NCBI GenBank assembly: GCA_018003015.1
Contig: JAGNEZ010000043.1
Span: 1 to 55,428 of the forward strand
Direction of reading: 5' to 3'
From: Phycisphaerae bacterium
Lineage (GTDB): Bacteria; Planctomycetota; Phycisphaerae; UBA1845; PWPN01
Length of the DNA stretch: 55,428 nt
The notes under the pieces: model-generated
Database searches by the model: none
Told to the model about the DNA's origin: nothing
The model's input: only the letters and a program-made list of their open reading frames with translations
Made by a program: the position numbers and the translations under genes
In this document: in pieces, positions 56 through 17,313 of the stretch
Layout: the number at the start of each line of letters is the position of its first letter
Numbering within the stretch: the stretch's first letter is position 1

Positions 56-142
56 TCAGCTGTTGCCGGTGGTGGCGTGGCGGTGTGGGCCCGTTCGCGA
101 CGGCGACGCAGACGATGTAATTCCTTGCACGGCAAGGACTTC

Positions 143-1009: not shown

Positions 1010-2143
1010 ATGATCTGCCCGTACTGTGTCCGCGAAGTCTCGTTCAGGCTTTCCCGAGCGGGGGCGACGGCCATCTCTGATGAGCCTGCCGTGGGCCAGC
1101 AACAGCAGGAATCCCCCAGTTCGGCAGGTCAGGCGTATCGCTGCTCGGCATGCAACCGCGAGATTCCCACGATGTTCGTTCGCGACTACCACCGCTATCC
1201 GCTGGTGGTAGGCAGCGGGGTCGGCTTTTCCGGTCACGGTAAGACGGTGTTTTTCGCATCCATGCTCCACGCCTTGCGGGATCATCGCCTCGCCGAGGCC
1301 TGGCCGCGGTTTTTCAGCCTGGCTCTGGACGATGCCAGCCTGACTACCGTGGTAGGCAACATGAACAGGCTTCAGAGTGGGGTGCTGCCGGAAGCCACGC
1401 CGCAGACTTTTGAGAATCCAACGCTGCTTCGGCTCAACAATCTTCCGCATCTGGGCAGTGCGGTGCTCTGCATGTACGACAACGGTGGCGAGGTGTTTCG
1501 GTCGGGCGGTGGCATTCAGCATTATGCGCACTACCTGGTTCACGCCCACACCGTGCTGTTCATGATCAGCATTCCGAGGCTTCGGGAACAGGATGACCTG
1601 CCGACGGCCATGTTTGGGCTGTTGAACGCGTTCATCCTGGGCATCCAGCAACTGGGTGGAGACACCCAGCGGCAGCACCTGGTGATTGCATACACCATGG
1701 CGGATGTCATGCTGCCCGATCTGGCAGAATGGGAGGTTCTGAGCGAGCATGTCAAGGGTGAGTCCTTTGATGATCTGGCGGACGTACGGGCGTATCTGCG
1801 GAAGATCTACGCCGTGTCCAGCCAGCTGCATCGGTACACGCAGGTTGGTCTGCGGGCGGCGGCGTTTCTCAACGCGGCGTTGGCGAACTTCGCCTCGGTG
1901 AGTTTCACGATTGTTTCTTCTCTGGGCGCGGCTCCCCAGGAGCGGCGGCTCACGACGCAGATTGCGCCGCGGCGTGTCCTGGACCCAATCCTGCTTCTCA
2001 TCGCCAACTCTCTGACCAGGACCAAGAGCTGCGAATCGACTGATGAAACGGAGCCGACTTCGGCCCCGTCGGACTGGAGATTGCGCGCCCAGGGTCTCCT
2101 GCGAGACTCGTGGACCAAGGTCCGCGAGCGGTTTCTGCAGTAA
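1010..2143 (+). CDS. zinc-ribbon P-loop GTPase A (Double-GTPase-like)
   Basis: Predicted cytosolic GTPase of 377 residues and the first gene of the operon. An N-terminal treble of Cys pairs, CPYC (3-6) and CSAC (45-48), forms a probable zinc ribbon. The P-loop (G1) is GFSGHGKT at 72-79, and DNGGE (157-161) fits a G3 DxxG motif followed by Glu. The G4 position reads TMAD (229-232), where GTPases normally have N/TKxD, so base recognition may be weakened. The layout resembles the Double-GTPase families described next to GAP1 proteins in predicted conflict systems; the family name is from memory. It is a clear paralog of the product of 6688-8484, which helps fix the start: ATG 1010 gives MICPYC, matching MSPMFCPYC. 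An in-frame GTG at 989 is the alternative. GAGG sits nine bases upstream of 1010. Confidence 0.8.
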   Translation: MICPYCVREVSFRLSRAGATAISDEPAVGQQQQESPSSAGQAYRCSACNREIPTMFVRDYHRYPLVVGSGVGFSGHGKTVFFASMLHALRDHRLAEAWPRFFSLALDDASLTTVVGNMNRLQSGVLPEATPQTFENPTLLRLNNLPHLGSAVLCMYDNGGEVFRSGGGIQHYAHYLVHAHTVLFMISIPRLREQDDLPTAMFGLLNAFILGIQQLGGDTQRQHLVIAYTMADVMLPDLAEWEVLSEHVKGESFDDLADVRAYLRKIYAVSSQLHRYTQVGLRAAAFLNAALANFASVSFTIVSSLGAAPQERRLTTQIAPRRVLDPILLLIANSLTRTKSCESTDETEPTSAPSDWRLRAQGLLRDSWTKVRERFLQ

Positions 2144-2172
2144 ACGGGGACCATCGTTGAGAGGTATGCGTC

Positions 2173-3318
2173 TTGAGTGACGGCACCCCTACGGGACCGA
2201 GACTTGCTGGTGCGATTGTCATGCCGGGAGCGGGCGTCGTCCATTGGTGGCGAAAGCTGACCGCCTCGCTGGACCGATCGCTGCCGGAGGATGCCAGCGC
2301 CGTTCCGAAGCTGCTGAGTCTGTTGCGACAGACGCGCAGGTTCATGGCTTTGGACGTCAGGGGCATGCTGCTGAGCTGGCTGGTCTTCTGGGGAGCGGCC
2401 CTGGGAGGGCTGGTTGGTCTCGTCCTGGTTGTCGCGGTGGCCAACTACCTTCTGAGCTGGTTCTGTCTCTGGCCGCTGCTGTTATTCGCAGCCAATGTTT
2501 TCGGGGTATGCGCTGTGTTGGGTGGTTTTGGAGGCATTGAAGCGTCACGGCGTGTTTCCTCGATGGACTATGTCATCTACGCCGCCTTGTGCGGGTTGCC
2601 CTGGTTGTTCTACCGCCATTGCGATCTGGCCGGTTGGCTGTACGGCCACGGCCACCCGCACCCGACCATGATGTGGGTGCTGCACATATTGATTCTAAGT
2701 ATTGCCCTCGAAGCCGGCTGGCTGGCCTACCTGGCGAAGCGCGCGGTTACTGTTCCTGAGATCGTCGGTGAGCTGTTGCGTCGCCTGTACATGAACAAGC
2801 TGAGAGCCCTGCTTGCCGCGCGGGTTCAGGCTCTGGATGGTGATGAAGAGTCGGCGCCGGGGCAGGCGTTGTGCGGCCCCTGCCTGTCGCGAGTGGAGTT
2901 GTACACCGACAGGTTGCTTGGTGCTCGGTACTACCGGTGCCGGTCCTGCCGCCGTGATTACCCGGAGGGCGACGACTGGGAGTCCTTCGAGGAGGTCGTT
3001 GCCATCCTGCACCAGAGTTGGAACTCTGCATCGATGGTCAAGGGCGGACGCCTCTACGTCAATGCCGACAAGCGGGACGGGCTCTTTGATTTCGACCGTG
3101 TTGAGATCCACGAGGCCGACGACGTGCAAGTCGAGCGGTTCGTGATGGCGGTGTCGAACGACCCGGATGCTGAGCGGCGTAGTCGCAGACGGCGATGCAC
3201 GATCAACCCTCAGATCAGCCTGTCCCAGCACACCGCCCACATGCTGGATGCCGTGTTCCAGGTGGCCAGGACGCAGCATTCCGCACGCGCCCTGCAGGGC
3301 GAGGAAACGGGCGCGTAG
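2173..3318 (+). CDS. polytopic membrane protein with cytosolic zinc ribbon
   Basis: Unknown function; 381 residues. About four hydrophobic segments lie near residues 67-95, 97-117, 131-148 and 167-188. They are followed by a soluble C-terminal half with a four-Cys zinc ribbon (CGPC 234-237, CRSC 256-259) and a region rich in Asp/Glu and Arg. The TTG start has AGAGG eight bases upstream and follows the GTPase A stop by 29 bases; an in-frame ATG lies at 2221. Its place between a GTPase and a vWA gene suggests it is the membrane platform of the complex. That role is inferred from context only. Confidence 0.7.
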   Translation: MSDGTPTGPRLAGAIVMPGAGVVHWWRKLTASLDRSLPEDASAVPKLLSLLRQTRRFMALDVRGMLLSWLVFWGAALGGLVGLVLVVAVANYLLSWFCLWPLLLFAANVFGVCAVLGGFGGIEASRRVSSMDYVIYAALCGLPWLFYRHCDLAGWLYGHGHPHPTMMWVLHILILSIALEAGWLAYLAKRAVTVPEIVGELLRRLYMNKLRALLAARVQALDGDEESAPGQALCGPCLSRVELYTDRLLGARYYRCRSCRRDYPEGDDWESFEEVVAILHQSWNSASMVKGGRLYVNADKRDGLFDFDRVEIHEADDVQVERFVMAVSNDPDAERRSRRRRCTINPQISLSQHTAHMLDAVFQVARTQHSARALQGEETGA

Positions 3319-3356
3319 GGTTTGCCTCAAACGAGGAGCGAAGGAACTTGCGAGCC

Positions 3357-4409
3357 ATGGATCGCCACATTCGCTGGTTCGATTTCGAGCTCACCACGAT
3401 ACCGAAGGTGCTGCTGGTCCTCGACGCCTCGGAAAGTGCGGAGGAATACGAGGAGGAGGTCCTGGAACTAGCCTCGGGCATCATCGCCGCTCTCCCGCAT
3501 TGCGATGCTGTTCGAGTGGCTTTCCTGGGCGGAACAGAGTTGTTCAGCGCGGAGCAGTTCTCCGCGGGCAAGACCGAGTTGTGGAAGAAGAACCTGGGAC
3601 GATGCAGTCTGATCAACCCGGTGTTCCGAGCAGCCTGCCCGACTGAGGAGCATCGCGTCGTGATCATTGGGACGGGCACGATCTTCGACCTGGAGGATCA
3701 GGCGGAGATGCTCGGTCGCCGGCTTCTTCTGGTCAGTGTGGGCCAGAGACTTGGGCCGGACGACGGTTCCTGGTTCTCGTTAGCGACTCGTCAGCTGCAG
3801 GAGGTGGTGGACCAGGTCTGGACCCGGGTGACGGGCGTTACGATCGGCGGGCCGGGTCTGTTGCCGATCTGCTGGGAGAATGATGCGTACCGGCTGGTAC
3901 TTGGCAGCGACGGGGCGGCGTTGAGACTCGAAGGGAGCGCCGAGCCCTCCACCCGCGTCGGTTTCCTCGCTCACGGGAACCGCCTACCCGCAGCGAGAGT
4001 CGCCTACGCCGACGGTCGGGAGGTCGAGGTGGTGCTGAAGACAACGCGGTCCTTCGAACGCGAACTCCGGCCGCTGCGGTTATTCACTGCCGAGGAAGCC
4101 TACCCGTTTTACCTGACGGTGACGGACGGGGCGGCGTGCGGCGCGGCCGTCCTGCCCCAGATGTGCCGGTCGGTCGCGTCGGACTGGTCTGGCTTCATCC
4201 TTGTAGCCGAAGCGGCGGAGGGTCTGGCGGCCTATGCCTACCCCTGGGAAGTGATCGCGACCGGGCCCGATCTGGTAGCCGTCTACCAGCCGGGGGGTGT
4301 GGTTCCGATCATCTTTGATCAACTCAGCCATGAGTGGCGGATGCACCCGGAGCAGCCCATGGGCGGATGCCTGGAACTGGGAGGAGGCGTTTATGGCGTC
4401 GCCCTGTGA
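3357..4409 (+). CDS. vWA-domain protein
   Basis: 350 residues. The N-terminus reads as a von Willebrand A fold: a beta strand, KVLLVLDASES (residues 17-27), carries the DxSxS metal-ion-dependent adhesion site, followed by a helix and a second strand near VRVAFLGG. The C-terminal half is a beta-rich region without a recognised domain. vWA domains usually mediate metal-dependent protein binding and often pair with ATPases or GTPases in predicted conflict systems. The frame is open further upstream (to 3195), but that part overlaps the previous gene out of frame and looks non-coding. ATG 3357, preceded by a purine-rich stretch, begins just before the conserved strand. The 3' end overlaps the next gene by 17 bases, so translation is probably coupled. 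Confidence 0.75.
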   Translation: MDRHIRWFDFELTTIPKVLLVLDASESAEEYEEEVLELASGIIAALPHCDAVRVAFLGGTELFSAEQFSAGKTELWKKNLGRCSLINPVFRAACPTEEHRVVIIGTGTIFDLEDQAEMLGRRLLLVSVGQRLGPDDGSWFSLATRQLQEVVDQVWTRVTGVTIGGPGLLPICWENDAYRLVLGSDGAALRLEGSAEPSTRVGFLAHGNRLPAARVAYADGREVEVVLKTTRSFERELRPLRLFTAEEAYPFYLTVTDGAACGAAVLPQMCRSVASDWSGFILVAEAAEGLAAYAYPWEVIATGPDLVAVYQPGGVVPIIFDQLSHEWRMHPEQPMGGCLELGGGVYGVAL

Positions 4410-5016
4410 TCGGACTGGCTTTCCCCTGCTAGCGATGCCGAAGTTGGGCGCAACCATGCACCTGTTGCCGGTGACGAAGGTTCAGTTCGAGTGTTTTCTC
4501 GCGGAGCCGTGCGGCTTTGGTGACGAATGGTACGAGGAAGTTCTGGAGACCAGTCCGCGAGTCTCGCCGACGCGGGCAACTGAAGCCGATCGGGAAGGAC
4601 TGTTCATGGCCGGGGTGATCCCGTCCGAAGTTGAAGCATTTGCCCAGTGGCTGGGGCCGAAGTGGCGAGTTCCCTTGGCGAAGGAATGGCGGCAGGCGTA
4701 CGCTTTGCTGAGGGCGGCGCCGTTTTCATCCGACGGGCTGGAGGCATGGGCGGGTTCAGATCTGAACCCGCTCGCCGCGGCGACCCTGCGTCTTCTTGAA
4801 CACCAACTGAAGCCGAAGACATGGCTGGATCTCTCCCTGATGAGTGGCGCGCTGCTGGAATGGGTAGGTTCCGGAAGGGAATGGGGTGGCTTAGGCGAAC
4901 CGCGGCCGCAGTTTGCCTCTTATCTCATCGATCCTCTTCGGAGTGACCCGATTCGGCCGATCCACCGCGACCGGCGGCTGAGAGATTTCGGAATGCGGCT
5001 CTGGTGTCCCCTGTGA
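4393..5016 (+). CDS. small formylglycine-generating-enzyme-like (FGE/SUMF) protein
   Basis: 207 residues. Signature stretches of the FGE-sulfatase (C-type-lectin-like) fold appear in order: PVTKVQFECFL near the N-terminus, then a VEAFAQWLG-x4-R-x-P-x4-EWR block, then LLEWVGSGREW, and a terminal FGMRLW. In related folds these read PVTxxxFxxF, AxxFCxWLGxRLPTExEWE, xExW and GFR. The protein is shorter than typical FGE (about 250-300), and the usual paired catalytic cysteines are not evident. It may therefore be a binding module and not an oxidase. ATG 4393 is preceded by a strong GGGAGGAGG and lies inside the 3' end of the vWA gene. An upstream in-frame start at 4297 would need a much longer overlap. 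Confidence 0.65.
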   Translation: MASPCDRTGFPLLAMPKLGATMHLLPVTKVQFECFLAEPCGFGDEWYEEVLETSPRVSPTRATEADREGLFMAGVIPSEVEAFAQWLGPKWRVPLAKEWRQAYALLRAAPFSSDGLEAWAGSDLNPLAAATLRLLEHQLKPKTWLDLSLMSGALLEWVGSGREWGGLGEPRPQFASYLIDPLRSDPIRPIHRDRRLRDFGMRLWCPL

Positions 5017-5032
5017 GCGAGGTAATACCTCC

Positions 5033-6667
5033 ATGACCGAACTTCGAGCTGGCCAGATTCTCTACACGCGGTTGAGCAAGGACCGTTCGCGAAGCGGCAA
5101 GGACGGGTACCAGACGCTGTGCTGCACGCGAGCGATCATCTGTGACACTGAACTCCCGGAGATTGAGGCTCGCTTCCTGTACTTTCCCACCGAGACCTCG
5201 CCGCCCAAGCACGTGTTTTTCGGTACGCGTAGTGGGAAGCTGGTGGTGGCCCGGATCAGTCGACTCGGGGAGACCGATGACCAGGGCAGGTTGATCAGCA
5301 TCGCCCATGGGCTGGTGTTTACGGCGGCGGACCTGATTCGGGGGGGTCTGCTTCCGCTGGCCGTCTTCGACGTGTTTCCTTTTCTCACCGACCTCCGGAG
5401 GGCCTTCGAGGTCGATCAAGGCCGCTCGGGTGGCGCTCCTCCGGTCACGATTGTGTTCCCTGATCCTGTTCCGCCGTCTGAGGCCGCCCGTTGGCCGCTC
5501 GAGGAGTTGCGCAAGCTGGCCTTCTACGCCCTGCGTGCCCAACGACTCGCGGAGAAGAACACTGCCCTGGCCATGACCGGGTCACCGGAGGCGATCCTGG
5601 CGGCCATGCGTGTTGCCCAGGCGTTGCTTGCTCCGGCTCGCTATGGTGAATGCCCGATGGACACCTACTTCGTGGACGCCCACAAGAACCCGTGCAACCT
5701 CCACGGCAATTACTGCTGGGCGGTAGGTCTTCCGGAGCCGCCTCGATTCGGCAACTTCATTGCGGTGGATGCCGAGCGATGCCGGGTCAACGACAACCCT
5801 TCCTGGAAACCTGCCGACGCCTACGAATACTGGCTGGCCGCCAAGTTGGCGGCCGGTCGCCTGGATGACATTGTTCGCGACAAGGGGGGAGTCCATCAGG
5901 TATCGCGGGCTTTGGCGGGCGAGTCTCTGGGTGAGGCTGTAGGGCCGAGGGTCATTGAAGAAGTGTGCAGGGCCGCGCCAGAGCTCCTGCGGAGCGGGTT
6001 GCGGGACCGCATGGCCCGGCTGATCGGCGGGGAGCTGGCCGATCGACTGGTCGATTCAGTCATGGCCGGCATGAACCCGGCCGAGATCATGGAGCGTTTG
6101 CGTGGTGGCTTTGACGCCGCGGCACTTCTTCAGCGTCTCTTCGAGCATTACGCAGCCAATCGCTTCCGCCGGCCGGCGGCGGAGGAGCTGAAGACGCTGG
6201 GTTCTGTTCTCGAGGCCCATCCCCGACGGAAGCTTCAGCTTCTCTGGGCGGCGTGGAGAGGTGAAGATGCCGCGATCCAGCAAGCTGGGAGAGCTTTTGA
6301 CGACGCCGGCTATGAGCAGGCGTGTGCTCTGTTTCTCGAGTATGGTCTGCCGGAGGTGCTCGGGCTGGTGCAGCCGGGTCGCGGAGCCGCTTTCCTTCGC
6401 GGCTACCTGACCAGTGACAGGGCTCATGCCATACCGCTGCCCGAGCTGGTGGATCGTCTGCTTCAAGTAGGCGAGGATGCGGCACTTGACTTGCTCGAGC
6501 CTCGGCTGGCTCGACTGGGGCTGGAGGACTTGAAGGAGCTGCGTCGTCTCTGCAAGCGGATAAAGAGCAAGAGGAGCTCGTTCACGGAGGCCCTTGAGAG
6601 CGCGTACAGCCAGGCCGTGAAGGAACGTGGGCTCTTTGCCCAGTTGCGTAACAAGTTCGGTATGTGA
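5033..6667 (+). CDS. GAP1-like GTPase-associated protein
   Basis: 544 residues. The N-terminus has the look of the GAP1 N-terminal domain: QILYTRLSKDRSRSGKDGYQ followed by strands ending in RFLYFPT, comparable with the LYT-x(n)-GxSGFQ start of GTPase-associated protein 1. A middle region contains CNLHGNYCWAVG, and the C-terminal third is alpha-helical and Leu/Arg/Glu-rich. Its position directly upstream of a GTPase gene, with an ATGTGA junction, matches the known neighbourhood of this family. The biochemical role is not established; regulation or partnering of the GTPases is inferred. A profile search with the GAP1-N/M/C families would settle the assignment. ATG 5033 lies 16 bases after the FGE-like stop, with GAGCGAGG upstream. 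Confidence 0.65.
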   Translation: MTELRAGQILYTRLSKDRSRSGKDGYQTLCCTRAIICDTELPEIEARFLYFPTETSPPKHVFFGTRSGKLVVARISRLGETDDQGRLISIAHGLVFTAADLIRGGLLPLAVFDVFPFLTDLRRAFEVDQGRSGGAPPVTIVFPDPVPPSEAARWPLEELRKLAFYALRAQRLAEKNTALAMTGSPEAILAAMRVAQALLAPARYGECPMDTYFVDAHKNPCNLHGNYCWAVGLPEPPRFGNFIAVDAERCRVNDNPSWKPADAYEYWLAAKLAAGRLDDIVRDKGGVHQVSRALAGESLGEAVGPRVIEEVCRAAPELLRSGLRDRMARLIGGELADRLVDSVMAGMNPAEIMERLRGGFDAAALLQRLFEHYAANRFRRPAAEELKTLGSVLEAHPRRKLQLLWAAWRGEDAAIQQAGRAFDDAGYEQACALFLEYGLPEVLGLVQPGRGAAFLRGYLTSDRAHAIPLPELVDRLLQVGEDAALDLLEPRLARLGLEDLKELRRLCKRIKSKRSSFTEALESAYSQAVKERGLFAQLRNKFGM

Positions 6668-6687
6668 TCTCAGCAGGAAGCACCACG

Positions 6688-8484
6688 ATGTCACCGATGT
6701 TCTGTCCCTACTGTGTGCGCAAAGTGACCTTCAAGCTCACTGTGGCGGGCCCTTCCGGAATGTCCGATGCCCCTGTCGCGGCAAGTGTCGTTCCTGGTCC
6801 CGCGGCGTCGGGGAACCGTCGCGACAGCGTCTATCGCTGCCCGGAGTGCAACGAAGAAATCCCTCCGATGTACGTACGGGAATACCGGAAGTGTCCGCCG
6901 GTTGTGGGCAACTTTGTTGGGTTCACGAGGCACGGCAAGACGGTATTGCTGGCCTCGCTGCTGCATGAAATGCGCAGTGATCGTCTGGCCCAGGCATGGA
7001 AGCACTTTCACAGCCTGGCCCTGGACGATCCAAGCCTACAGACGGTTTTGAGCAACATGGCCAAATTGCGGGAGGGCATCTTGCCCGAGGCCACCGCTGC
7101 TGGCGGCAACTTCACTCGACCCACGTTGCTGCGACTGGCCAACGTACCGACGCTGGGCAGCTCGACGCTTTGCCTGTACGACGTGGGTGGGGAGACGTTC
7201 ACATCCGGCCAGAGCATTGGGCAATACGCTCGATTCCTGTCCCAGGCCAAAACGGTGCTGTTTCTGGTGAGCCTGAGCACACTGGAGCAACAGTATCCCA
7301 CGCTCAGCGATGGCCTGCACCACCTCTTGGGCGCCTACGTGTTAGGTTTGAACAACAGCCTGCAGGGCGACACGCGAAGCCAGCACCTGGTTGTGGTGTA
7401 CACCAAAGCGGATGAGCTGATTGCTTCCCATCTGGCTTCGAGACCGGGGCTGCAGGAGTACATTCGCCACGAGGATTTGGACGAACTGAAGGACCCCAAG
7501 AAGTACCTAGCCAGAGTGTTCGCGGTTTCCCAGGAATTGCACCGGTTCACGCAGGAGGAACTGAAGGCTCAGTTGTTTCTGAACACTGCCCGCGACAGTT
7601 TCGCCTCGGTGAGCTTTGCGATCGTCTCGGCGCTTGGGGCCAGCCCAGACACCGGCAAAGGACGATTGACAACCCAGATCGCGCCGCGTCGTGTGCTGGA
7701 CCCGCTGCTGCTGATGATGCTCAAAGGCAAGCTGCCGGTTGAGGAAGGAGATCGCGAAGACGAAGACGATGACGATGACAACGACGTGATTCCCTCAAGG
7801 CCCTGGACTGCGGGGCGGCTTCTGGGGACAGGTGGCGTCGTTGCCGCCATCCTGGCGGTCCTGGTGGTGACCGGTCTGCTCATCAGTATGGCCGTTCGGA
7901 GCGAGCCGAACAAAACGGCCGCGAAGCCGGTTCCGCAGGTTGTCGATCGAGGGCAGCCGGGGAAGGCTGGTCCGGTGACACCTCAGCCGTTTCAGCCGAA
8001 ACCCGCGCCTGGAGCCGCTCAGGGTGGCTCAAGAATGAATCAAATTCCGTCGGCGCAGAGGGAAGCCATACGAGCACGAACCGGTGGAGGGGTTTCTCCC
8101 GGGGTTGCCCGAGGCCCGGTCCTACCACCCAGAGCAGAGGGGACGGTGACCTCGGTCACTCCCGCATTCACTCGTGAAGGAGGTTCAGTCACGGTGACGA
8201 TCACGCTGGGAGAACGAGATGGTGTTCGTCGTGGTGAGGAGTTGAAAGTACAGGCCAAGCGGCATCCCATTCCCGACCCGATGAAGCCGGGCGGGTTGCT
8301 TGGTTTCGAGGAGTACTCTGTCAGGGTAGTGACCGTTGCGGCGGATACGTGTCAGGCTGAACTGCTGGACAGCACGCAGGGGGGGTTGCCGGCCAGCGGC
8401 GACGCGGTATCGCGTGGCGTTGCTGGGCCGAGCAGGGCCCCCGCGGATGCCCTCAGGTTGCCGTCGGGAAGACGTCGGCGATAG
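6688..8484 (+). CDS. membrane-anchored zinc-ribbon GTPase B with FlgT/MreC-like extracytoplasmic domain
   Basis: 598 residues and a paralog of GTPase A. Domain order: zinc ribbon (CPYC 6-9, CPEC 51-54); GTPase with G1 GFTRHGKT (78-85), G3 DVGGE (165-169) and an intact G4 TKAD (239-242); an acidic stretch of Asp/Glu (353-366); one transmembrane helix (about 381-403); a Pro-rich linker; and a C-terminal beta-rich domain (485-577). That last domain contains LGERDGVRRGEELKV, like the 'xGSxxGVxxGDxLxV' signature of FlgT/MreC-type domains. The GTPase would be cytosolic and the last domain outside the inner membrane. ATG 6688 has AGGAAG seven bases upstream; an in-frame GTG at 6664 overlaps the GAP1-like stop. 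The 3' end overlaps the convergent ATPase gene tail to tail by 32 bases. Confidence 0.82.
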   Translation: MSPMFCPYCVRKVTFKLTVAGPSGMSDAPVAASVVPGPAASGNRRDSVYRCPECNEEIPPMYVREYRKCPPVVGNFVGFTRHGKTVLLASLLHEMRSDRLAQAWKHFHSLALDDPSLQTVLSNMAKLREGILPEATAAGGNFTRPTLLRLANVPTLGSSTLCLYDVGGETFTSGQSIGQYARFLSQAKTVLFLVSLSTLEQQYPTLSDGLHHLLGAYVLGLNNSLQGDTRSQHLVVVYTKADELIASHLASRPGLQEYIRHEDLDELKDPKKYLARVFAVSQELHRFTQEELKAQLFLNTARDSFASVSFAIVSALGASPDTGKGRLTTQIAPRRVLDPLLLMMLKGKLPVEEGDREDEDDDDDNDVIPSRPWTAGRLLGTGGVVAAILAVLVVTGLLISMAVRSEPNKTAAKPVPQVVDRGQPGKAGPVTPQPFQPKPAPGAAQGGSRMNQIPSAQREAIRARTGGGVSPGVARGPVLPPRAEGTVTSVTPAFTREGGSVTVTITLGERDGVRRGEELKVQAKRHPIPDPMKPGGLLGFEEYSVRVVTVAADTCQAELLDSTQGGLPASGDAVSRGVAGPSRAPADALRLPSGRRRR

Positions 8485-11400
8485 CCGTTGTCGGAGCGAG
8501 GTGGGCCTGTTCTGTGCAATGGACGAGGATGCAGAGCCCGAGCGAGTCGACGACCTCGGGGCATGGGGTGAAGAGGGCCGCGCCGGCCCGCTGCCTGCAG
8601 AGATCGCGGATCGTCTGGACCGGGGCCTTTGCGGCGTAGAGATCGGACAGGGTCTTGCGTAAGCCGGGCGTGGCAGCCAGACGCTCCCCCAAGGGGCTGA
8701 ACAGGCAGACGTGGCGGCACGCTGTGCAGCCTGCCCATGGGTGGCCATTTGGGCTCGTGGCTTCGTCGATGTGCTGTCGCAGCTGGCTGGCCTGCGATGG
8801 CGAGGCGGTTCCTGTCTGCCGTGATTCGTGGACCAGGTTGATGAGGCTCTCGACGACATGCTGGATCGTGCGCAGGGTCGCTCGGTTGGAGCCGTGGAGT
8901 GCCCACAGTGTGCTTTCGCAAGCGGTGATGAAGACGCACCAAGCCAGGGCTTCATCTTCCGTGTCGCTCCTGCGGCTCCGTTTGCGATGCGGGGCCAGCT
9001 GTTCGATCAGTTGCGGCCACGCAGCGATTGCAGCGTTCGGGTCGTAGGCGCAGGACAGGGCGTAGGCCCAGAGGGTCTCGGCGGTGCCGCGGCCGGCGGC
9101 CAGCCGGCGGGCCTCCGCTCCGAACGCACAGATCTCGCGGCACCCGTGGCAGCCATGCCATGGGTGAAAGATCTTCTCATGCTGGATGATCACCCTTTCG
9201 GCAGCGGCCTTGACGTCGTGATTGCCGACGGGTTGCGTGTGGGCGTATCGTGGTATTCGGACGAGGGCTGGCGTTTCGCAGCCCTCGGCGTACGCGACGG
9301 CCTCGCCCCGCCGCAGACTCGTCACCGCCATTTTCTGTCGGCCCATGAGATTCATGGCGCCGCCGATGAGATCGCGATCATCGGTGGCGACGATTCGGTG
9401 CATCACCTTGAGATTCGTGTTCTTGATCATGTCGTCCGCGAGCTTTGCGGGGATTTGCTCGGCGACCAGGAGCCCCTCGCCGTAGGCCCGTATTTCGGCC
9501 AACATGTTGCAGAACGTCTCGACCGACTTGCCTTTGGGGTTAGCGCTCTCGGCGGAGGAGGTGTCGGTCGAGGTTCGGGTGAGTAGCCGGTGAGCCTCTT
9601 CGATGAGGGTAACGTGCTCGAGTCCGGGCTGTTCGCCGCGACGCTCGAGGGTCTCGTACAGTCGCATCAACAGGAGGCCCATGAAGAAAGCCTTCTCCTC
9701 GTCGCTGCCGAGATGGGCGATTTCGAGGACGGTTGGACGACTGAGGAGATCCTCGAACGGAATGGATCGGGGGCAATCGAACGTTTGCCCCTTCTGGCCG
9801 ATCCGCAGGGTATCCACGCGAGCCTGGAGCCCCGCGGTCACATCCATGCGAATACGGCTCTCGTAGCCGAGTTGGTCCACCACTTCGCCGATAGTTCGGT
9901 GCAGATCGCTGAGTGTGGGAAACGCCAGGGGCGGAGGCTCACCGCTGGCGGGGTCGGCCTCGGGATGATGGACGAGCAGCATGTCCCAACCGCGTTCCTC
10001 GTAGATGCGGTGGAGGGATCGCTCCAGGACGTAGGGCATGGGTGCGTAGAGAATGAATGCCGCGTTGAAGACCGCGTAGAGAAGAGAGATGTGCTGCTGG
10101 GGGATGGTTCCCGGGGCGAACTCGAATGGATTCAACGGGAACGGAGCCACTTGTGCCAGGCCGGGGGTGAAGACCTGCAGATTCTCGAAGCCGGGCACGC
10201 CGAGGAGGGTGCGGTATTGAGCCTTAGCCGGCTCGATGACCATGAAGGGCACGTGATGTCGAGTCCACAACTGGTGCAGGAGGTGAAGAGCGGTGTTGGT
10301 CTTACCGCTCCCGGTCACGCCGACGATCAAGGCGTGGCGGGTGAGATCATCGAGGTCGATGCTGAACCGCCGCCCTGTGGAGCCGGCATGGCCGAGGATC
10401 TCGCCGAGGTCGATGGCTCTGCGGTCAACGCTTTGGAGATCTACCGAGAATTCGCGGGGTGTCTTGATATAAAAGCCGCACACCTCCCTTCGGGGCAGTT
10501 CGGCGAGGAGGCCGGCCTCGGAGCTGGTGAGCACGGTCTGATCGCAGAGAGCGCCAAGCCCGAGAGGGTTAGGCCGGCCGGTGGTTGTTTGCCCGGCGCG
10601 GAGTTGTGCCAAATCGGCGATGGTCCCATTGGGCGGTTCGTGGTGGAGAATCATGACCGGTTGGGGTTTGGATTTGGCGCCGGCGAACACGGCACGAAGC
10701 AACGAGGCGGCCTGATCGAGCTGTCCTGCTTCCGAGGCTGCGAGCAGTGTGCTGGCCCTCCACATGCCTTCGCGGAGCCCGGCAGCCATTTTCTCATGGG
10801 CGGACTCCATGAGCTGTTCCTGGTATTGAGCGAGTCGATCGAGGCGTTGGCGTTGCTCGCTCTGCACGCTGGTTTGCTGCCCGCTTTCGGACCATGAGAC
10901 GTGCTGGTGGATCAGGTTGATGCGGAGGCTGAGTTCCTGGAAGGCGGAGTCCACGTCGGCGGTGGAGACAGGTGAAGCATCGAGGAAGTAGCAGTAATCT
11001 GTTCCGGACAATGCCCTGACGATCTGGTCGACCGGGCAGAACCGCTCGACATCGGGAGCTTCTGGCCAGGGATGGCCGACCATGGAGAGAGCGACGCGCA
11101 TGGCCGCAAGCCGCTTGAGGACTGGAGCGAAGTCTTCCTCGCTGCGGAGGGGGCGGAGGTCGAGTTCGGGATAGGCGCTCAGCAGGCAGGTTTGCAGGGA
11201 ACGGAAGGCGATGGCAGCCCGGTTGACTGCGTCCTGCTCGGAGGCGGCTTCAGCTCTCACGCCCCAGTAGATTTCCACCTCCGGGCCGGAGTTCAACAGG
11301 AGATACAGCGTCGAGGCGGCTCCTCCGCTGAGACCGGTCAGAACGCGGCCCGCCGGCCCGGCGAGGGACTCATCTTTTCGCCTGCGTAGCCCGCCGTGCA

Positions 11401-11767
11401 CGGCCATTCCTCGGCATCGAGCCAGCATGACGGCGTACGGGGCGTGGTCGAGGGGGGTGAATACCAAGCCGGCATCGCGGTACAGCCGGGCGGCGGACGG
11501 TGATGACCGCATTGGGAGGCCCGTTCCCTGCAGGTCGTGTCCTTCCCAGAAAGCGATTTGCTGTTGGAAATCGGGACGCAACGTTCCGGTCGTTGAAACC
11601 ACGGGAGTTGACAAGGCGTTTGTCCCGGGCGGGGGGACCCCGGCGACAGCGGTCTCGGACGCCTGCGAGGGACCGGTGGCCCGAGCTGAAGGTGGCGGAG
11701 GGTGGGCGGTCGATGGCGGCCCAGGGCGGAAGCCGCCGTAAGCTGGGTTACCTGGTCCGGTGTTCAT
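8453..11767 (-). CDS. HerA/FtsK-type ATPase with duplicated Cys-cluster C-terminus
   Basis: 1104 residues. A proline-rich head and a long N-terminal region (to about residue 470) precede the motor domain. Walker A is GVTGSGKT (483-490), followed by MVIEPAKAQYR, as in HerA/DUF87 and VirB4-like ATPases. Walker B is HVTLIEEAHRLL (718-729), followed by EIRAYGEGLLVAEQ and a KVMHRI stretch. These enzymes form hexamers that move DNA or proteins. The last 240 residues carry two copies of an unusual motif, HPWxGCxxCRxxCxF, at about 868 and 1009, each a possible metal site. Start: ATG 11767 (GGGGAT about eight bases upstream) avoids overlap with the upstream stop at 11823; the frame stays open to 11869. 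It is the last gene of a four-gene minus-strand run that converges on GTPase B. Confidence 0.8.
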   Translation of the reverse strand: MNTGPGNPAYGGFRPGPPSTAHPPPPSARATGPSQASETAVAGVPPPGTNALSTPVVSTTGTLRPDFQQQIAFWEGHDLQGTGLPMRSSPSAARLYRDAGLVFTPLDHAPYAVMLARCRGMAVHGGLRRRKDESLAGPAGRVLTGLSGGAASTLYLLLNSGPEVEIYWGVRAEAASEQDAVNRAAIAFRSLQTCLLSAYPELDLRPLRSEEDFAPVLKRLAAMRVALSMVGHPWPEAPDVERFCPVDQIVRALSGTDYCYFLDASPVSTADVDSAFQELSLRINLIHQHVSWSESGQQTSVQSEQRQRLDRLAQYQEQLMESAHEKMAAGLREGMWRASTLLAASEAGQLDQAASLLRAVFAGAKSKPQPVMILHHEPPNGTIADLAQLRAGQTTTGRPNPLGLGALCDQTVLTSSEAGLLAELPRREVCGFYIKTPREFSVDLQSVDRRAIDLGEILGHAGSTGRRFSIDLDDLTRHALIVGVTGSGKTNTALHLLHQLWTRHHVPFMVIEPAKAQYRTLLGVPGFENLQVFTPGLAQVAPFPLNPFEFAPGTIPQQHISLLYAVFNAAFILYAPMPYVLERSLHRIYEERGWDMLLVHHPEADPASGEPPPLAFPTLSDLHRTIGEVVDQLGYESRIRMDVTAGLQARVDTLRIGQKGQTFDCPRSIPFEDLLSRPTVLEIAHLGSDEEKAFFMGLLLMRLYETLERRGEQPGLEHVTLIEEAHRLLTRTSTDTSSAESANPKGKSVETFCNMLAEIRAYGEGLLVAEQIPAKLADDMIKNTNLKVMHRIVATDDRDLIGGAMNLMGRQKMAVTSLRRGEAVAYAEGCETPALVRIPRYAHTQPVGNHDVKAAAERVIIQHEKIFHPWHGCHGCREICAFGAEARRLAAGRGTAETLWAYALSCAYDPNAAIAAWPQLIEQLAPHRKRSRRSDTEDEALAWCVFITACESTLWALHGSNRATLRTIQHVVESLINLVHESRQTGTASPSQASQLRQHIDEATSPNGHPWAGCTACRHVCLFSPLGERLAATPGLRKTLSDLYAAKAPVQTIRDLCRQRAGAALFTPCPEVVDSLGLCILVHCTEQAHLAPTTAIADVFPTAT

Positions 11768-11822: not shown

Positions 11823-13532
11823 TCACCGGCGTAATCTCGGAGTTGCGGGACGTCGTCGCTGGGTCTCATTGATCTTCTGGATCAGCTTGCGGGCTTCGGC
11901 GGCCTCGGCAGAGGCCGGAGCCTCACGAAGGACCGTGTAGCACTCTGTCCGAGCCTTGTCGTACTGCTGATTCTTGAGGAACGTGTTGGCTGCCTCAAGG
12001 CGCTCCTTCAGTTTTTCTGGTGGTTCGCGCTCGAGGGCAGGTTTCTTTGCCACTCCGCCTGGGCCTTGGGCCGAGGGCTGGGTGGCCAGACGGAGCAGTT
12101 CCGGATTACCGGGCAACACGAGTTCGCTGATCAGTCTGGAGTAGACACTGCGGGTGGCCATGTTCTTTCCCGCCTGATCGCTGAGGGTGATCTGGCCGTT
12201 GGGTTTCTCGAAGAAAGCGGAGATACGGAATATCATGGGCACATTGCCACCGGTCCAGTTGGTAGCCGCCAGATGATGATCTCCGTAGACGATGCGGGCC
12301 AGACTGCCGCTGGCCACCTGCTCGCTATTGTTGGTCACGACTGGCTTGTCGTCGATGGTCACCTGGTTTGGATACCAGGCGCTGCCGGAACCGGTGCAGA
12401 GCAACTCGGACCACGTAGACTGGGCATCGGGCCAGGCTAGAATCAGGTCCTTGAGGGCTCCTGCGGTCATTTCGACCTGCAGCATCTGCATCTGATTGGC
12501 GATCTCGGTGAAGAACTCGCAGCTTGCCCGCAGTCGGACCTCCACGTCTGTGGCGGACAAGTCTGCGCTGACTGAATCGATCGCCCGGCCCACGTTGTGC
12601 CACACGAGGCTGAGCTGAGTCGTTTGTCGCGCGGCGTTGAGTGGCGTGTGGCTGGCCACGACGATTCGGCTATCGGGGAAGACCCAGACGGACTCGCCCC
12701 GGGAACCGGCCTTGACCAAGACAAGGACGTCACCGATTTCAGCCAGGCTGCCGAGGGTCTGCAGGGCTTTCTTGACCGGGTCCATCTTGAGGACAACGCC
12801 GAGGTTGCCCTCGAGACCGGAGCGGAAGCCGTAATCCGAGGCGCGGAGGCCAGTGCGAAGGACGCCGCGGGCGTTCTGTGCGGCTCGCCTGTTCTGGCGA
12901 TCCTCGAGTCGGAGCTCGATGCTGCATCCGGCCGGCGTGTTCTCCATGCTGACGGAGAGTTCCAGCGGGGCCTGCCCGGGCGGCGCCAATGGTGGCCAGC
13001 CTGCGGCAGTCGCCGCCGCCGCCATCGCGTCGCGCACCTCCTGTTTACCGATTGTCACATCTGGAGAGATCTTGACCGGGCCCAGGGCGACCCGGTAGCG
13101 TCCGCTGTCTCGCGATGGAATCACGGCATTCAGTCTGCCCTCGCTGTCGCGTTCCTCGGCCTTACCTTCGATCAACTCGCAGATCGACAGCTTCTCCTGG
13201 ACGGTGGCCACCTTCAGCCGGCCGACCACTTCGCGTTTAGTGGCCGGTGGGTGGCCGGAGTTGGCCGGCTCGGGCTTTCTTCCCGTTGTGCGGACGATAT
13301 CCAGGGTGTCGTTTTTCTCGATGCCGCTGGCTGATCCGAGGTTGATGTAGACCTTGTTGCCGCTGACTTTGGCGATGGCTCCTGTCGGCTGGGCACTGTC
13401 ATTCTCCAGTTGGCCCAGCAGACCTCGGAGCGTGTCGGTGAGTCCCGTACTTGATTCCCCTTTTGTCGCGGATGCCCTGCCGAGCAGAGTCGTAGCGATG
13501 GCCAGGATGATGTATTGGCGCCTGTGACTCAC
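11823..13532 (-). CDS. secreted FlgT-like/TPR protein
   Basis: 569 residues, probably periplasmic. The GTG at 13532 has a near-perfect AGAGGAGG six bases upstream and begins a signal peptide (SHRRQYIILAIATTLLGRASA). Residues 50-130 form a FlgT/CsgG-associated-like module: GAIAKVSGNKVYINLGS, then GIEKNDTLDIV, VVGRLKV and a final strand. This resembles the last domain of GTPase B. The middle part is beta-rich and unassigned. The C-terminus (EKLKERLEAANTFL, YDKARTECYTVL, AEARKLIQKI) looks like a single tetratricopeptide repeat. Upstream open frame to 13805 is not used: it lacks features and overlaps the preceding gene. The gene is probably co-transcribed with the M48 and HerA-type genes. Confidence 0.72.
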   Translation of the reverse strand: MSHRRQYIILAIATTLLGRASATKGESSTGLTDTLRGLLGQLENDSAQPTGAIAKVSGNKVYINLGSASGIEKNDTLDIVRTTGRKPEPANSGHPPATKREVVGRLKVATVQEKLSICELIEGKAEERDSEGRLNAVIPSRDSGRYRVALGPVKISPDVTIGKQEVRDAMAAAATAAGWPPLAPPGQAPLELSVSMENTPAGCSIELRLEDRQNRRAAQNARGVLRTGLRASDYGFRSGLEGNLGVVLKMDPVKKALQTLGSLAEIGDVLVLVKAGSRGESVWVFPDSRIVVASHTPLNAARQTTQLSLVWHNVGRAIDSVSADLSATDVEVRLRASCEFFTEIANQMQMLQVEMTAGALKDLILAWPDAQSTWSELLCTGSGSAWYPNQVTIDDKPVVTNNSEQVASGSLARIVYGDHHLAATNWTGGNVPMIFRISAFFEKPNGQITLSDQAGKNMATRSVYSRLISELVLPGNPELLRLATQPSAQGPGGVAKKPALEREPPEKLKERLEAANTFLKNQQYDKARTECYTVLREAPASAEAAEARKLIQKINETQRRRPATPRLRR

Positions 13533-14172
13533 GGTAGGCCTCCTCTGATGAAGAACCAGACGGCTTGACCGCCGGTTGCAGTCCATGACGTGTCCTTGGC
13601 GTGGGCGAGACCCGCGAGGGGTTCTTGGCCGCGTGGTCACCCTGCAGCAGCCAGCGAGCCAGTTGTGCTGCGGGGCGTACGACGGCGAAGCGTGCGGCCG
13701 TGCGAAGCCCGGACCGGTCGCGGATGCAGTGGGCCAGACGAGGCCCGAGGCGGCTGTAGATCGCGACGCCGATCCATCCCAGGGAGTGGTGTAGCAGCCA
13801 CTCATCGCGAAGACGTCGTAACAGGATGACCTCCGGGGCCTCTTCGTCTCCGCAGACCGCGGTCAGGACGAAGCAACCGGTGCGGGCGATTTCGGCGCCC
13901 TGTTCGTTGGTGATGCGGGTCACGTTGATGACGCCGCGCCAGGCGTAGCCTGATACCAGGACACGGTCACCCAGGTCCAGGGTGCCTCGGAGGGCGCCGG
14001 CCAAGCGGCAGTTCACCACCTGGCCGTAGTCGGTTCGCAGCCGGAAGACGGTGGCAGGCGTGTTGTGTCCGAGGAAGCCGCCTCGTTCGGAGACCTGCTG
14101 GGGGAGACGGTCCACTGCGCCGCCGATGCTTCCGCCGCCGGGCATGTGACTGGTGTGTACGGGCATCCACAT
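13399..14172 (-). CDS. hypothetical protein with probable beta-barrel (OB-like) core
   Basis: 257 residues if the frame is read to its stop. The middle shows alternating strands, TPATVFRLRTDYGQVVNCRL, then LDLGDRVLVSGYAWRGVINVTRI, a pattern often seen in OB folds. An Arg-rich segment follows. I recognise no family. The last 45 or so codons (13399-13532) overlap the signal-peptide region of the next gene in another frame. They read like shadow translation, so the functional end may lie earlier or a frameshift may be present. ATG 14172 lies 13 bases after the M48 stop with GAGGAA upstream, so the two genes are probably one operon. Confidence 0.5.
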   Translation of the reverse strand: MWMPVHTSHMPGGGSIGGAVDRLPQQVSERGGFLGHNTPATVFRLRTDYGQVVNCRLAGALRGTLDLGDRVLVSGYAWRGVINVTRITNEQGAEIARTGCFVLTAVCGDEEAPEVILLRRLRDEWLLHHSLGWIGVAIYSRLGPRLAHCIRDRSGLRTAARFAVVRPAAQLARWLLQGDHAAKNPSRVSPTPRTRHGLQPAVKPSGSSSEEAYRESQAPIHHPGHRYDSARQGIRDKRGIKYGTHRHAPRSAGPTGE

Positions 14173-14185: not shown

Positions 14186-15643
14186 TCAATTTGCCGATCG
14201 CTGCGGTCCGGCCATGGCCAGGTAAGCCAGGCGCTCCATGAACGGTGGATGTGTGCGAAAGAGCCGCTCGGCCCAGAGGGTGCCAGCTTTCGGATCTCCC
14301 CCTGAGGCCAGACTGGCGATCAGGTCGTCGATGCTGTACTGTTCGTTGTGGGTGAAACGGGACCGTGCGTACCTACCGACCGCAGCGAGTTCTCCCGGGA
14401 ACAGGGCCAGGCTGGCTGCGAGTGCGGCCAGCACGCCTTGGGTATCACCCAGCACGTTGACGGTGCGCAGATCGGCCCGTCGCTCGACGAAGCGGCTGTA
14501 GCCCAGGCATGCCGCGATGACGAGGAGCAGCCAGAGACTCAAGGCAACCGCGTAGAATGCGACCATTGACAGGAGCATGGCCAGGGCCAAGAGCACCAGC
14601 AGGCCAACGAGGCAGCCCATCGGGCTACCTCGTGACATCATGACGAACATGGCGATTGGTCCGACTCCGGATCCCTGGGTCATCTGGCCGGCCGCCACGC
14701 GTAGCCGCCACGCAAGGCCGAGGATGGCCTCCATTGCGGCAAGAACCGGCCCGCTGACGGTGAAGAAGAAGGTATCGAACAGCTGGAGATGGACCAGTTC
14801 GTGAACGAGGACTGCCTTGAGAGCGAAGGAGGAACCGGACTGGCGCATGGTGTCGACCAAGCCGGTGTTGACTCGCAGACGGCTGAACCGAGGACTGATG
14901 CCGAAGCTACGGATGTTGGGGGTCGGGTCGTCGATCATCACCAGCGTCGGCCGGGGCAGGTTCATCTCTCGGCAAGCCTCGGCGAGCGGATCGAGGACTT
15001 CTCGCTCCTCGGGTGTGGCGGTTGCCTCCGTGACCAGTCGTCCGGATCCGGGCAGCGCCCACCGGAGGGCGATGATCAGGTAGGCGGCTGATGCCGCCAG
15101 CCAGGCGAAGGTTGGGCCGGTTTCTGATTCAGCTCCCCCCACTGCGGTTGCCGCCCACCGGAAGCCGCCCAGCACGCACGCCAGGGTGAGGATTCCCAGC
15201 CCCAGGGATAGGGCTCCGGCCATTGGAGGAGCGGAAGGCAGGGTGAGCGTCGGCTGCCTGGCCTTTTCTTGTGAGGCGTCCGACGGCTCTGTTGTGGGTG
15301 ATGGAAGCGGAGCTCGTTTTGACCGCGCCTGCTCCTGGACTGTTCCCATCCAGACACAGATCTGGCACTCGCGCGCGAACCGACCGGAGCTGACCCGTAC
15401 GGTGGCCTGGTGTTGGCCGAAACCCGGCAATTGGGTGGCATCTACGGCGAGCATGAGCTCGCGGCCCTTGGCGGTTGCAGAACCCAGCACCGCCTCGACC
15501 CATGGTTCCGAGGTGGTCAGTTCGAAATCCACGTCACCGTCGATCAGTCCGAGCACGGTGATCGAGCGCCATTCCGTGGCGCCCGGAGCGATACGTCCGA
15601 AGTCCACGCTTGGACGGGACAGATTGAAGGACACCTCCGCCAC
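14186..15643 (-). CDS. M48-family membrane metalloprotease with Ig-like N-terminal domain
   Basis: 485 residues. Residues 1-100 are a beta sandwich resembling ASH/HYDIN-type Ig domains (PSVDFGRIAPGATEWRSITV, then ...DATQLPGFGQHQATVRVSSG). Two transmembrane helices follow (about 140-162 and 178-196). The catalytic part has the zinc motif HELVH (281-285) and the distal ligand ERRAD after a hydrophobic pair of helices, as in HtpX/Ste24-like M48 enzymes. Orientation suggests the active site faces the cytosol. It starts with GTG 15643, preceded by GAGGTGGG. It heads the minus-strand operon that contains the secreted FlgT-like protein and the HerA-type ATPase, so a proteolytic step in the same pathway is plausible but inferred. 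Confidence 0.8.
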   Translation of the reverse strand: MAEVSFNLSRPSVDFGRIAPGATEWRSITVLGLIDGDVDFELTTSEPWVEAVLGSATAKGRELMLAVDATQLPGFGQHQATVRVSSGRFARECQICVWMGTVQEQARSKRAPLPSPTTEPSDASQEKARQPTLTLPSAPPMAGALSLGLGILTLACVLGGFRWAATAVGGAESETGPTFAWLAASAAYLIIALRWALPGSGRLVTEATATPEEREVLDPLAEACREMNLPRPTLVMIDDPTPNIRSFGISPRFSRLRVNTGLVDTMRQSGSSFALKAVLVHELVHLQLFDTFFFTVSGPVLAAMEAILGLAWRLRVAAGQMTQGSGVGPIAMFVMMSRGSPMGCLVGLLVLLALAMLLSMVAFYAVALSLWLLLVIAACLGYSRFVERRADLRTVNVLGDTQGVLAALAASLALFPGELAAVGRYARSRFTHNEQYSIDDLIASLASGGDPKAGTLWAERLFRTHPPFMERLAYLAMAGPQRSAN

Positions 15644-16290: not shown

Positions 16291-16617
16291 GGGTGCGTCC
16301 TCTGTGGCTTCGTGTGAATCCCCGTCTGATCCGGCAACGAACAGAGCACGTGATTAGTGCATCCTAGCCCGAATCTGCTAGACTGTAAAGGGGGTGCTCG
16401 CTGGCGGACTTGGCCGGCAATGTCTGAAGGGGGTGATGCCCGGTCATTGACATGGTGCGATCGGGCGCGGGTCGACGCAAGCCGACCGCTGGTGAGCCCG
16501 GCGCGTCCCATGTAGCGGAGCGCGGACGGCAGGTCCGTCTTGGCGGAAGCGTCCACGGGGAAGCTGGCCGCCGCCCCGCTATCGGCCTGGCTTCGATCAG
16601 AGGCGGCAAGTGCGGGA
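16291..16617. other. divergent intergenic region, no gene
   Basis: 327 bases between the minus-strand hypothetical gene and the plus-strand radical-SAM gene. It must hold divergent promoters, but I found no pair of boxes good enough to call. TAGACT near 16378 is a possible plus-strand -10 without a matching -35. The frame of the radical-SAM gene stays open up to 16540, without a recognisable upstream domain. Confidence 0.4.
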
Positions 16618-17313
16618 ATGACGATGATGCCTCCAGCCGGTTACACAACTGAAGGGCGATTGCGCGTAGCCCGGCGTAAGACCTGCAGCAGAGTGCTCGG
16701 GCCAGGCTCGCGGGCGGTGATCTGGTTTCATGGATGCGACCTCGGTTGCCCCGGCTGCGTTGCCCGGGAATTGAACACGTCTGCGCGTTACGAAGTGTGT
16801 TCAGCGGCGGAGCTGGCAGGCTGGGTGCTGGCCATCCCAGGCATCGAGGGTATCACGCTGACGGGAGGCGAGCCTTTTCAGCAATCCCCTGGGGAGCTCG
16901 GCGTGTTCCTGGATTGTGTGCGGCGGGCCAGCGAATTGTCGGTGATGTGTTACACGGGTTATACGCTGGATGCGCTCCTCGCAAGCCCGGAGGGCGAGGC
17001 CCATCAACGGCTCCTGGGCTACATCGACATCCTGGTTGACGGGCCTTATGTCGCGGGGCGCAACGAGGGCCATCTCTGGAGGGGCTCGGCCAATCAGCGG
17101 ATCCATTTCCTGACCGACCGCTATCGCTCCATGTCCGGCACGGTCGAGCGATCCAAGGGACGAGCCATTGAGGTCGAGCTTATTGAAGGACGTCGCTTGG
17201 AGCTGACGGGTATCCCGGAGGCCGGCTTTCTCGATCGGTTCAGACGGCACTTGGACAGGCAAGGCATGATCCTGGACTTCAGCGAGGCTGCCTCCGGATC
17301 GGTGATAGGATGA
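16618..17313 (+). CDS. radical-SAM activase-like protein (NrdG-like)
   Basis: 231 residues, about the size of pyruvate-formate-lyase or NrdG activases. The 4Fe-4S motif CDLGCPGC (CxxxCxxC) is at residues 40-47, followed by an SAM-binding GGEPF at 83-87. The VLGPGSRAVIWFHGC start is typical of NrdG-like '4Fe-4S single cluster' proteins. No anaerobic ribonucleotide reductase gene is nearby; its neighbours are coiled-coil and AAA+ genes, so it may modify or activate a protein of that operon. Several close ATGs (16618, 16624, 16627) are possible starts and none has a strong ribosome-binding site. The next gene begins six bases after the stop. Confidence 0.75.
   Translation: MTMMPPAGYTTEGRLRVARRKTCSRVLGPGSRAVIWFHGCDLGCPGCVARELNTSARYEVCSAAELAGWVLAIPGIEGITLTGGEPFQQSPGELGVFLDCVRRASELSVMCYTGYTLDALLASPEGEAHQRLLGYIDILVDGPYVAGRNEGHLWRGSANQRIHFLTDRYRSMSGTVERSKGRAIEVELIEGRRLELTGIPEAGFLDRFRRHLDRQGMILDFSEAASGSVIG

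What the first reader, a model, noticed from the sequence alone, without database searches (positions are those of the whole stretch)
1010..8484. Six-gene GTPase / GAP1-like / vWA / FGE-like cassette
Two paralogous zinc-ribbon GTPases bracket a membrane zinc-ribbon protein, a vWA protein, an FGE-like protein and a GAP1-like protein, all on one strand with short gaps or overlaps. GTPases with GAP1 and vWA partners have been predicted to form NTP-dependent conflict (defence or cell-death) systems. Here one GTPase is membrane anchored, which suggests an envelope-facing version. Domain calls are seen; the conflict role is inferred.
Basis: partly seen in the sequence, partly recalled or inferred. 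Interest (0 to 1): 0.82.

Follow-up and report, generated by a model that had tools for sequence, protein, structure and literature searches.

The report
Divergent membrane-anchored twin-GTPase switch operon
Six neighbouring genes in a planctomycete genome form a very diverged version of a predicted but never tested bacterial GTPase switch system, with one of its two GTPases anchored in the membrane; whether it fights phages or does routine envelope work is unknown.

Summary
The six-gene run at 1010-8484 is real: all six frames are intact, in the same order and under purifying selection in a congener (omega 0.13-0.27). The two GTPases are sister DO-GTPase2-family proteins (E 1e-17 to 1e-21 against a profile of 38 relatives; support 100/100). 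Gene 6 has one membrane helix and a FlgT_C-like outer domain. Gene 5 is a highly diverged GAP1-N2 (sub-threshold in Pfam; profile score 29.3 against at most 22.1 in shuffles). Gene 4 is a reduced FGE-like fold. The vWA call for gene 3 rests on one motif and is unproven. [quoted passage not shown] 2020, PMC7159879), found only in this genus among the genomes searched. The nearest GTPase relative lies in an operon with radical-SAM and triple-AAA+ genes, whose homologues lie 8-14 kb downstream here. And a canonical FGE/DO-GTPase2/GAP1-N2 cassette is near-universal in the order, which suggests a housekeeping or envelope role at least as much as conflict. The defence role is untested.

The parts
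1010..2143 (+). GTPa: soluble DO-GTPase2-family GTPase with N-terminal CxxC pairs; base-recognition motif altered (TMAD)
2173..3318 (+). MEM: membrane protein with at least three helices, then a zinc ribbon (CGPC/CRSC) and a family-less domain
   Evidence: no Pfam match; helices and CxxC; omega 0.23
3357..4409 (+). vWA-like protein (DASES motif only) with a C-terminal region of unknown fold; vWA unproven
4393..5016 (+). FGE/SUMF1-like reduced domain without a C-terminal cysteine pair
5033..6667 (+). GAP1-N2-like protein, diverged
6688..8484 (+). GTPb: DO-GTPase2-family GTPase with one C-terminal membrane helix and an outer FlgT_C-like domain
8453..11767 (-). HerA/DUF87-family ATPase (start trimmed by comparison with the congener); neighbour, link to the cassette uncertain
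11823..13586 (-). FlgT_C-containing protein with signal-like N-terminus (start re-set to aa 74 of the ORF); possibly associated
14186..15643 (-). membrane M48-family peptidase with a beta-rich-looking N-terminal region; possibly associated
16540..17313 (+). radical-SAM activase-like protein (Fer4_12); homologue in the G422 DO-GTPase2/GAP1-N2 operon
17320..18840 (+). coiled-coil protein CC1, weakly similar to the gene after the radical-SAM gene in G422
18837..22133 (+). triple-AAA+ protein AAA3; homologue in the same G422 operon
22102..23238 (+). coiled-coil protein CC2

Best explanation
The cassette is a highly diverged GAP1-N2-type DO-GTPase system that acts as a membrane-linked GTP switch. 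Shown by sequence: two sister DO-GTPases, one soluble (gene 1) and one tethered to the membrane with a FlgT_C-like domain beyond its membrane helix (gene 6); a GAP1-like partner; a zinc-ribbon membrane protein; and an FGE-like protein that looks non-catalytic. Inferred: the outer domain of gene 6 (and perhaps the FlgT_C protein at 11823-13586) reads an envelope state or ligand; the two GTPases form a heterodimer whose GTP state is read by GAP1; GAP1 then rearranges a complex containing the membrane protein and the two ligand-binding-type proteins (genes 3 and 4), whose output is a change at the inner membrane. Gene 1's altered base-recognition motif suggests that it is the weaker nucleotide binder, so a regulatory rather than a cycling half.
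For: DO-GTPase2 and GAP1-N2 matches. Profile hits to both GTPases. Sister-pair tree. GAP1 collinearity with score 29.3 against shuffle mean 16.9, sd 2.7, max 22.1. DO-GTPase directly followed by GAP1-N2 in nearly all fetched planctomycete loci. Paired GTPase paralogues, membrane-anchored copy, domains beyond a C-terminal TM and planctomycete FGE partners are described for this class (PMC7159879). TM and CxxC pattern. Purifying selection on all six genes.
Against: GAP1 and FGE matches are below Pfam cut-offs. GAP1-C was not detected and no FNIII component was found. vWA is unproven. Both structure models are unusable (pLDDT 41 and 32). The cassette was found in only one genus, so co-evolution cannot be tested. 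No experiment on any such system was found in the library searched.
Confidence: 0.6

Rival explanations
1. It is a housekeeping envelope or cell-structure GTPase system, not a conflict system; the window cassette is a second, genus-specific variant of a conserved cellular machine.
For: DO-GTPase2 is over Pfam's cut-off in 78 of 114 genomes of the order, mostly one copy. The cassette coiled coil - FGE - DO-GTPase2 - GAP1-N2 keeps its order in most of 20 fetched loci with changing flanks. The GTPase tree groups largely by family label. Window genes show no sign of positive selection or changed architecture between the two species. In other planctomycetes the pair is linked to a MotA/TolQ/ExbB-type channel.
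Against: The window GTPases are far from the order-core GTPase (stem about 3 changes per site) and restricted to one genus. Conserved systems can still be defensive. The G422 relative lies in an operon with a TIR-domain gene.
Confidence: 0.35
2. It is an active anti-phage or cell-death conflict system: the switch is thrown by infection and the membrane protein or an associated gene kills or arrests the cell.
For: The class is predicted to be a conflict class on comparative-genomic grounds (PMC7159879). The window variant is genus-restricted in an otherwise different background. The nearest GTPase relative sits with TIR and HSP70 genes.
Against: No defence model matches the six genes. No recognisable toxin or nuclease among them. 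No sign of rapid evolution between the two species. The order-core version is near-universal.
Confidence: 0.3
3. The unit is larger, about 1010-23238: the GTPase switch and the radical-SAM / triple-AAA+ / coiled-coil genes at 16540-23238 work together, the AAA+ machine and the radical-SAM enzyme processing or modifying a client that the switch deploys.
For: In G422 homologues of the radical-SAM (4.5e-35) and triple-AAA+ (1e-99) genes lie on one strand with a DO-GTPase2/GAP1-N2 pair, and that GTPase is the best relative of the window GTPases found. The radical-SAM gene and the cassette are each nearly confined to this genus within the order.
Against: Most radical-SAM loci in other planctomycetes have no DO-GTPase within about 10 kb. 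Four genes on the opposite strand separate the two halves in the window. CC1 similarity is weak.
Confidence: 0.35
4. The six genes are unrelated neighbours and the domain names over-read weak similarity.
For: Three of six assignments are below curated cut-offs or absent.
Against: Short gaps and an overlap, same strand, conserved order and selection in a second species; a GTPase pair bracketing a GAP1-like gene, as the class predicts; GAP1 score above all shuffles.
Confidence: 0.05

Closest known systems
[quoted passage not shown]
   Same: DO-GTPase2 pair with one membrane-anchored paralogue carrying a domain beyond its C-terminal TM, GAP1-N2-like partner, zinc ribbons, FGE-type partner as reported for planctomycetes, further membrane protein.
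   Different: GAP1 below the family cut-off and lying between the GTPases; CxxC pairs for one zinc ribbon per GTPase rather than two; multi-helix segment in a separate zinc-ribbon protein instead of fused to the GTPase; FlgT_C-like outer domain; no FNIII protein found.
Order-core cassette of the same planctomycete order (L042 and L147-L166): coiled coils - FGE - DO-GTPase2 - GAP1-N2
   Same: DO-GTPase2, GAP1-N2 and FGE-type genes in one same-strand run.
   Different: One GTPase only, without membrane anchor; full-length FGE domain (4.2e-39); coiled-coil partners; near-universal in the order; GTPase only distantly related.
G422 operon (L048/L040): radical SAM - coiled coil - TIR - triple AAA+ - HSP70 - ZnR/coiled coil/FNIII-like - DO-GTPase2 - GAP1-N2
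   Same: Closest GTPase relative found for the window pair; shares radical-SAM and triple-AAA+ genes with window 16540-22133.
   Different: One GTPase, canonical GAP1-N2/M (1.4e-37, 1.5e-18), HSP70 and TIR genes, no FGE-like or MEM-like gene recognised.

Membership tests
[quoted passage not shown]
   DO-GTPase2 2.1e-6, over cut-off, for gene 6; profile E 1.5e-21 and 1.4e-17; DVGGE / DNGGE motifs
[quoted passage not shown]
   N2 0.0017, below cut-off; collinear alignment over N2 and into M, above all shuffles; C domain not detected; model unusable
[quoted passage not shown]
   Gene 5 lies 20 bases before GTPb and three genes after GTPa; adjacent, but upstream of the nearer GTPase
[quoted passage not shown]
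   Two CxxC pairs per GTPase, enough for one ribbon; the paper says 'usually', so not strictly required
[quoted passage not shown]
   GTPb has the C-terminal TM only; a multi-helix zinc-ribbon segment is a separate protein, MEM
[quoted passage not shown]
   No FNIII match in the six genes or in 8456-27322; diverged repeats could be missed
Anti-phage conflict system (function) | Protection from phage or infection-triggered death | not testable with these tools
vWA domain family (gene 3) | vWA fold with complete metal-binding site | tested here: inconclusive
   DxSxS motif only; no Pfam or meaningful PDB-sequence match; model pLDDT 32
Formylglycine-generating enzyme (gene 4, catalytic) | Active-site cysteine pair in the C-terminal part | tested here: not met
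   Cysteines only at 5, 34, 40 and 205 of 207; fold match weak, 0.00043

The most novel reading that the evidence does not exclude
The window holds a composite 22-kb machine in which a membrane-anchored DO-GTPase pair and a diverged GAP1 control a radical-SAM/triple-AAA+ module. More generally, DO-GTPase2/GAP1-N2 systems in Planctomycetota, near-universal in this order and elsewhere linked to MotA/TolQ-type channels, are core envelope machines rather than, or before being, conflict systems.
Probability: 0.2. Interest if true: 0.72.

Novelty: new variant of a known kind. Interest (0 to 1): 0.46.

Why it matters
The DO-GTPase/GAP1 class is known from comparative genomics; the searches of the open library found no experiment on it. 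A compact variant with its own membrane anchor is a tractable test case. The finding that the canonical cassette is near-universal in one planctomycete order makes the open question, conflict system or cellular machine, directly testable by deletion in a cultured planctomycete.

Tried and rejected
Structure prediction of GAP1 and the vWA-like protein from two-sequence alignments failed (pLDDT 41 and 32), so no fold searches were run on those models. The genome-contig scan with the GTPase alignment found only the congener. A GAP hit in G428 (L041) is antisense to dnaX and was discarded. A first GTPase profile was contaminated with antisense frames and rebuilt. At least one low-scoring DO-GTPase2 hit (G038, L045) looks by eye like an MnmE-type GTPase, so I use the curated cut-off for counts. 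An integration site at the tRNA-Gln (142-217) was tested: no second copy of the tRNA end in the window. Plasmid and phage collections hold no relative of GTPb. PDB sequence searches gave nothing meaningful. RSAM loci in other planctomycetes were fetched to test for linkage with DO-GTPases and mostly lacked it. G488 has radical-SAM loci but no window-type cassette on the short contigs. The promoter and terminator scan was uninformative.

Full report
The observation. Six genes lie on the + strand between 1010 and 8484, with gaps of 29, 38, -17, 16 and 20 bases. The window is a whole contig of a 6.86-Mb planctomycete genome. A second species of the same genus (G001, identified as JAKLEZ010000004.1, Planctomycetota bacterium isolate RA.bin145) carries the whole region in the same order at about 90% nucleotide identity. 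Each of the six frames is intact there and under purifying selection: omega 0.134, 0.233, 0.272, 0.142, 0.179 and 0.264 from gene 1 to gene 6, at dS about 0.25-0.30. The genes are therefore real.

The GTPases. Genes 1 and 6 are 52% identical over their shared part. Pfam gives DO-GTPase2 at 2.1e-6 (over cut-off) for gene 6 and 0.0029 for gene 1. A profile built from 38 planctomycete DO-GTPases without them finds them at 1.5e-21 and 1.4e-17. Both have a P-loop (GFTRHGKT / GFSGHGKT) and DxGGE. Gene 6 has TKAD and gene 1 TMAD at the base-recognition motif. In a tree of 47 DO-GTPases they are sisters with full support on a very long stem; deep placement is unsure because long branches meet. Gene 6 alone has a strong membrane helix (aa 384-402) followed by a proline-rich linker and a FlgT_C-like domain (aa 502-559, E 0.0028, below cut-off).

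The partners. Gene 5 has GAP1-N2 as its best Pfam match (0.0017, below cut-off). Profile-profile alignment to canonical planctomycete GAP1 proteins runs collinearly from residue 6 to 247, across GAP1-N2 and into the region of GAP1-M. The score of 29.3 exceeds 60 shuffles (max 22.1) and 59 other proteins of similar length (max 23.3); the one higher scorer, in L044, itself has GAP1-N2 as its best Pfam match and follows a DO-GTPase. Gene 4 matches FGE-sulfatase at 0.00043, below cut-off, and has no cysteine pair in its C-terminal half, so formylglycine formation is unlikely (inference). Gene 2 is a zinc-ribbon membrane protein without family match. Gene 3 carries VLLVLDASES. This motif type occurs in 9 of 582 neighbourhood ORFs, about six of which look vWA-like by eye or by Pfam. 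Nothing else supports vWA, and the structure model is useless, so I treat it as unproven.

What it belongs to. Kaur et al. 2020 (PMC7159879) described GTPase-centric systems made of a DO-GTPase, often as two paralogues, and GAP1, with GAP1-N2 versions in planctomycetes among others, membrane-anchored paralogues with domains beyond a C-terminal TM, and FGE-type partners in planctomycetes. The window cassette fits that class but departs in several usual features: one zinc ribbon per GTPase, a separate multi-helix protein, no FNIII protein, and a GAP1 so diverged that it falls below the Pfam cut-off. Hence a new variant of a known kind.

Distribution. The window GAP1 protein was found in 2 of 41 relatives, both of this genus, and in no other of 392 phylum genomes; one weak further match was antisense to dnaX. 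The same holds for the GTPase in 392 phylum genomes, apart from one weak true relative in G422, a different family of the phylum. In G422 that GTPase is followed by a canonical GAP1-N2/M protein (1.4e-37, 1.5e-18) and preceded by radical-SAM, coiled-coil, TIR, triple-AAA+, HSP70 and coiled-coil genes on one strand. Homologues of the radical-SAM gene (4.5e-35) and the triple-AAA+ gene (1e-99) lie at 16540-17313 and 18837-22133 of the window. The link is suggestive only: radical-SAM homologues in other planctomycetes mostly lack a DO-GTPase within about 10 kb, and genes on the opposite strand separate the two halves here.

A result that cuts against a simple defence reading. The same genome holds a second, canonical cassette on contig C30: coiled coil, full FGE domain (4.2e-39), DO-GTPase2, GAP1-N2. 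DO-GTPase2 is over the Pfam cut-off in 78 of 114 genomes of the order, usually once. Of 20 order loci read in detail, 18 have the short GAP1-N2 protein in the clustered neighbourhood and 15 the FGE gene. The GTPase tree groups largely by family. This near-universal, mostly single-copy pattern is what a cellular machine shows; a conflict system can also be widespread, so this shifts but does not settle the odds. In other planctomycetes the DO-GTPase/GAP1-N2 pair is followed by a large TM protein, a GYF protein (sometimes with trypsin), a MotA/TolQ/ExbB channel (9.0e-11) and one or two single-TM proteins. The 2020 paper's main text mentions GYF but not MotA, TolQ or ExbB.

Mechanism. The best-supported model is a membrane-linked GTP switch: GTPb senses or is positioned by the envelope through its outer domain, pairs with GTPa, and GAP1 converts the GTP state into rearrangement of a complex with the membrane zinc-ribbon protein and genes 3 and 4. 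Shown: gene content, families of genes 1 and 6, membrane anchor, conservation. Well supported: the GAP1 relationship. Inferred: heterodimer, sensing, output. The conflict role is possible but has no direct support here; no defence model hits the six genes.

Limits. The congener is a metagenome-assembled genome and the host is probably uncultured; E-values in the genome search are per genome; transmembrane calls are hydropathy based; structure models failed; the order-core tree uses a sample of loci; the own order was searched for the GAP1-like protein only in the 41 relatives.

Noticed in passing
L042:8841-12396 (G000 contig C30) and L147-L166: Order-wide, mostly single-copy cassette: small protein - coiled coil - FGE/SUMF1-like - DO-GTPase2 - GAP1-N2; DO-GTPase2 over cut-off in 78 of 114 genomes of the order. 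Looks like a kept cellular machine rather than a patchy defence system.
   Followed up: partly
L128:8158-19634; also L130, L132, L134, L138: Elsewhere in the phylum DO-GTPase2/GAP1-N2 is followed by a ~1000-aa TM protein, a GYF (or GYF-trypsin) protein, a MotA/TolQ/ExbB-family channel (PF01618 9e-11; weak ZorA-like PADLOC matches) and single-TM proteins reminiscent of TolR/ZorB; this channel link is not mentioned in the main text of PMC7159879.
   Followed up: partly
window 16540-23238; L048:17037-19201 and L040:2218-5724: Radical-SAM activase, coiled coil, triple-AAA+ and second coiled coil; the radical-SAM/triple-AAA+ pair also lies in the G422 DO-GTPase2/GAP1-N2 operon.
   Followed up: partly
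window 8453-15643: HerA/DUF87-family ATPase, FlgT_C-containing protein with signal-like N-terminus and M48 membrane peptidase on the opposite strand; a FlgT_C-like domain is shared with the outer part of GTPb.
   Followed up: partly
L044:7515-12625 (G503): A third type in the same order: a GYF-like N-terminus by eye fused to a DO-GTPase with C-terminal TM, a GAP1-N2-like gene (0.0012) and a RING-like/PDZ protein, beside a MoxR-DUF58-BatA operon.
   Followed up: partly
L048:51-16974 (G422): Eight tandem TPR-type genes, seven with an N-terminal Ser/Thr-kinase-like region by eye, immediately upstream of the radical-SAM/AAA+/DO-GTPase operon.
   Followed up: no
window 142-217: tRNA-Gln(CTG) just upstream of the cassette; no second copy of its 3' end in the window, so no sign of a tRNA integration site.
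   Followed up: yes
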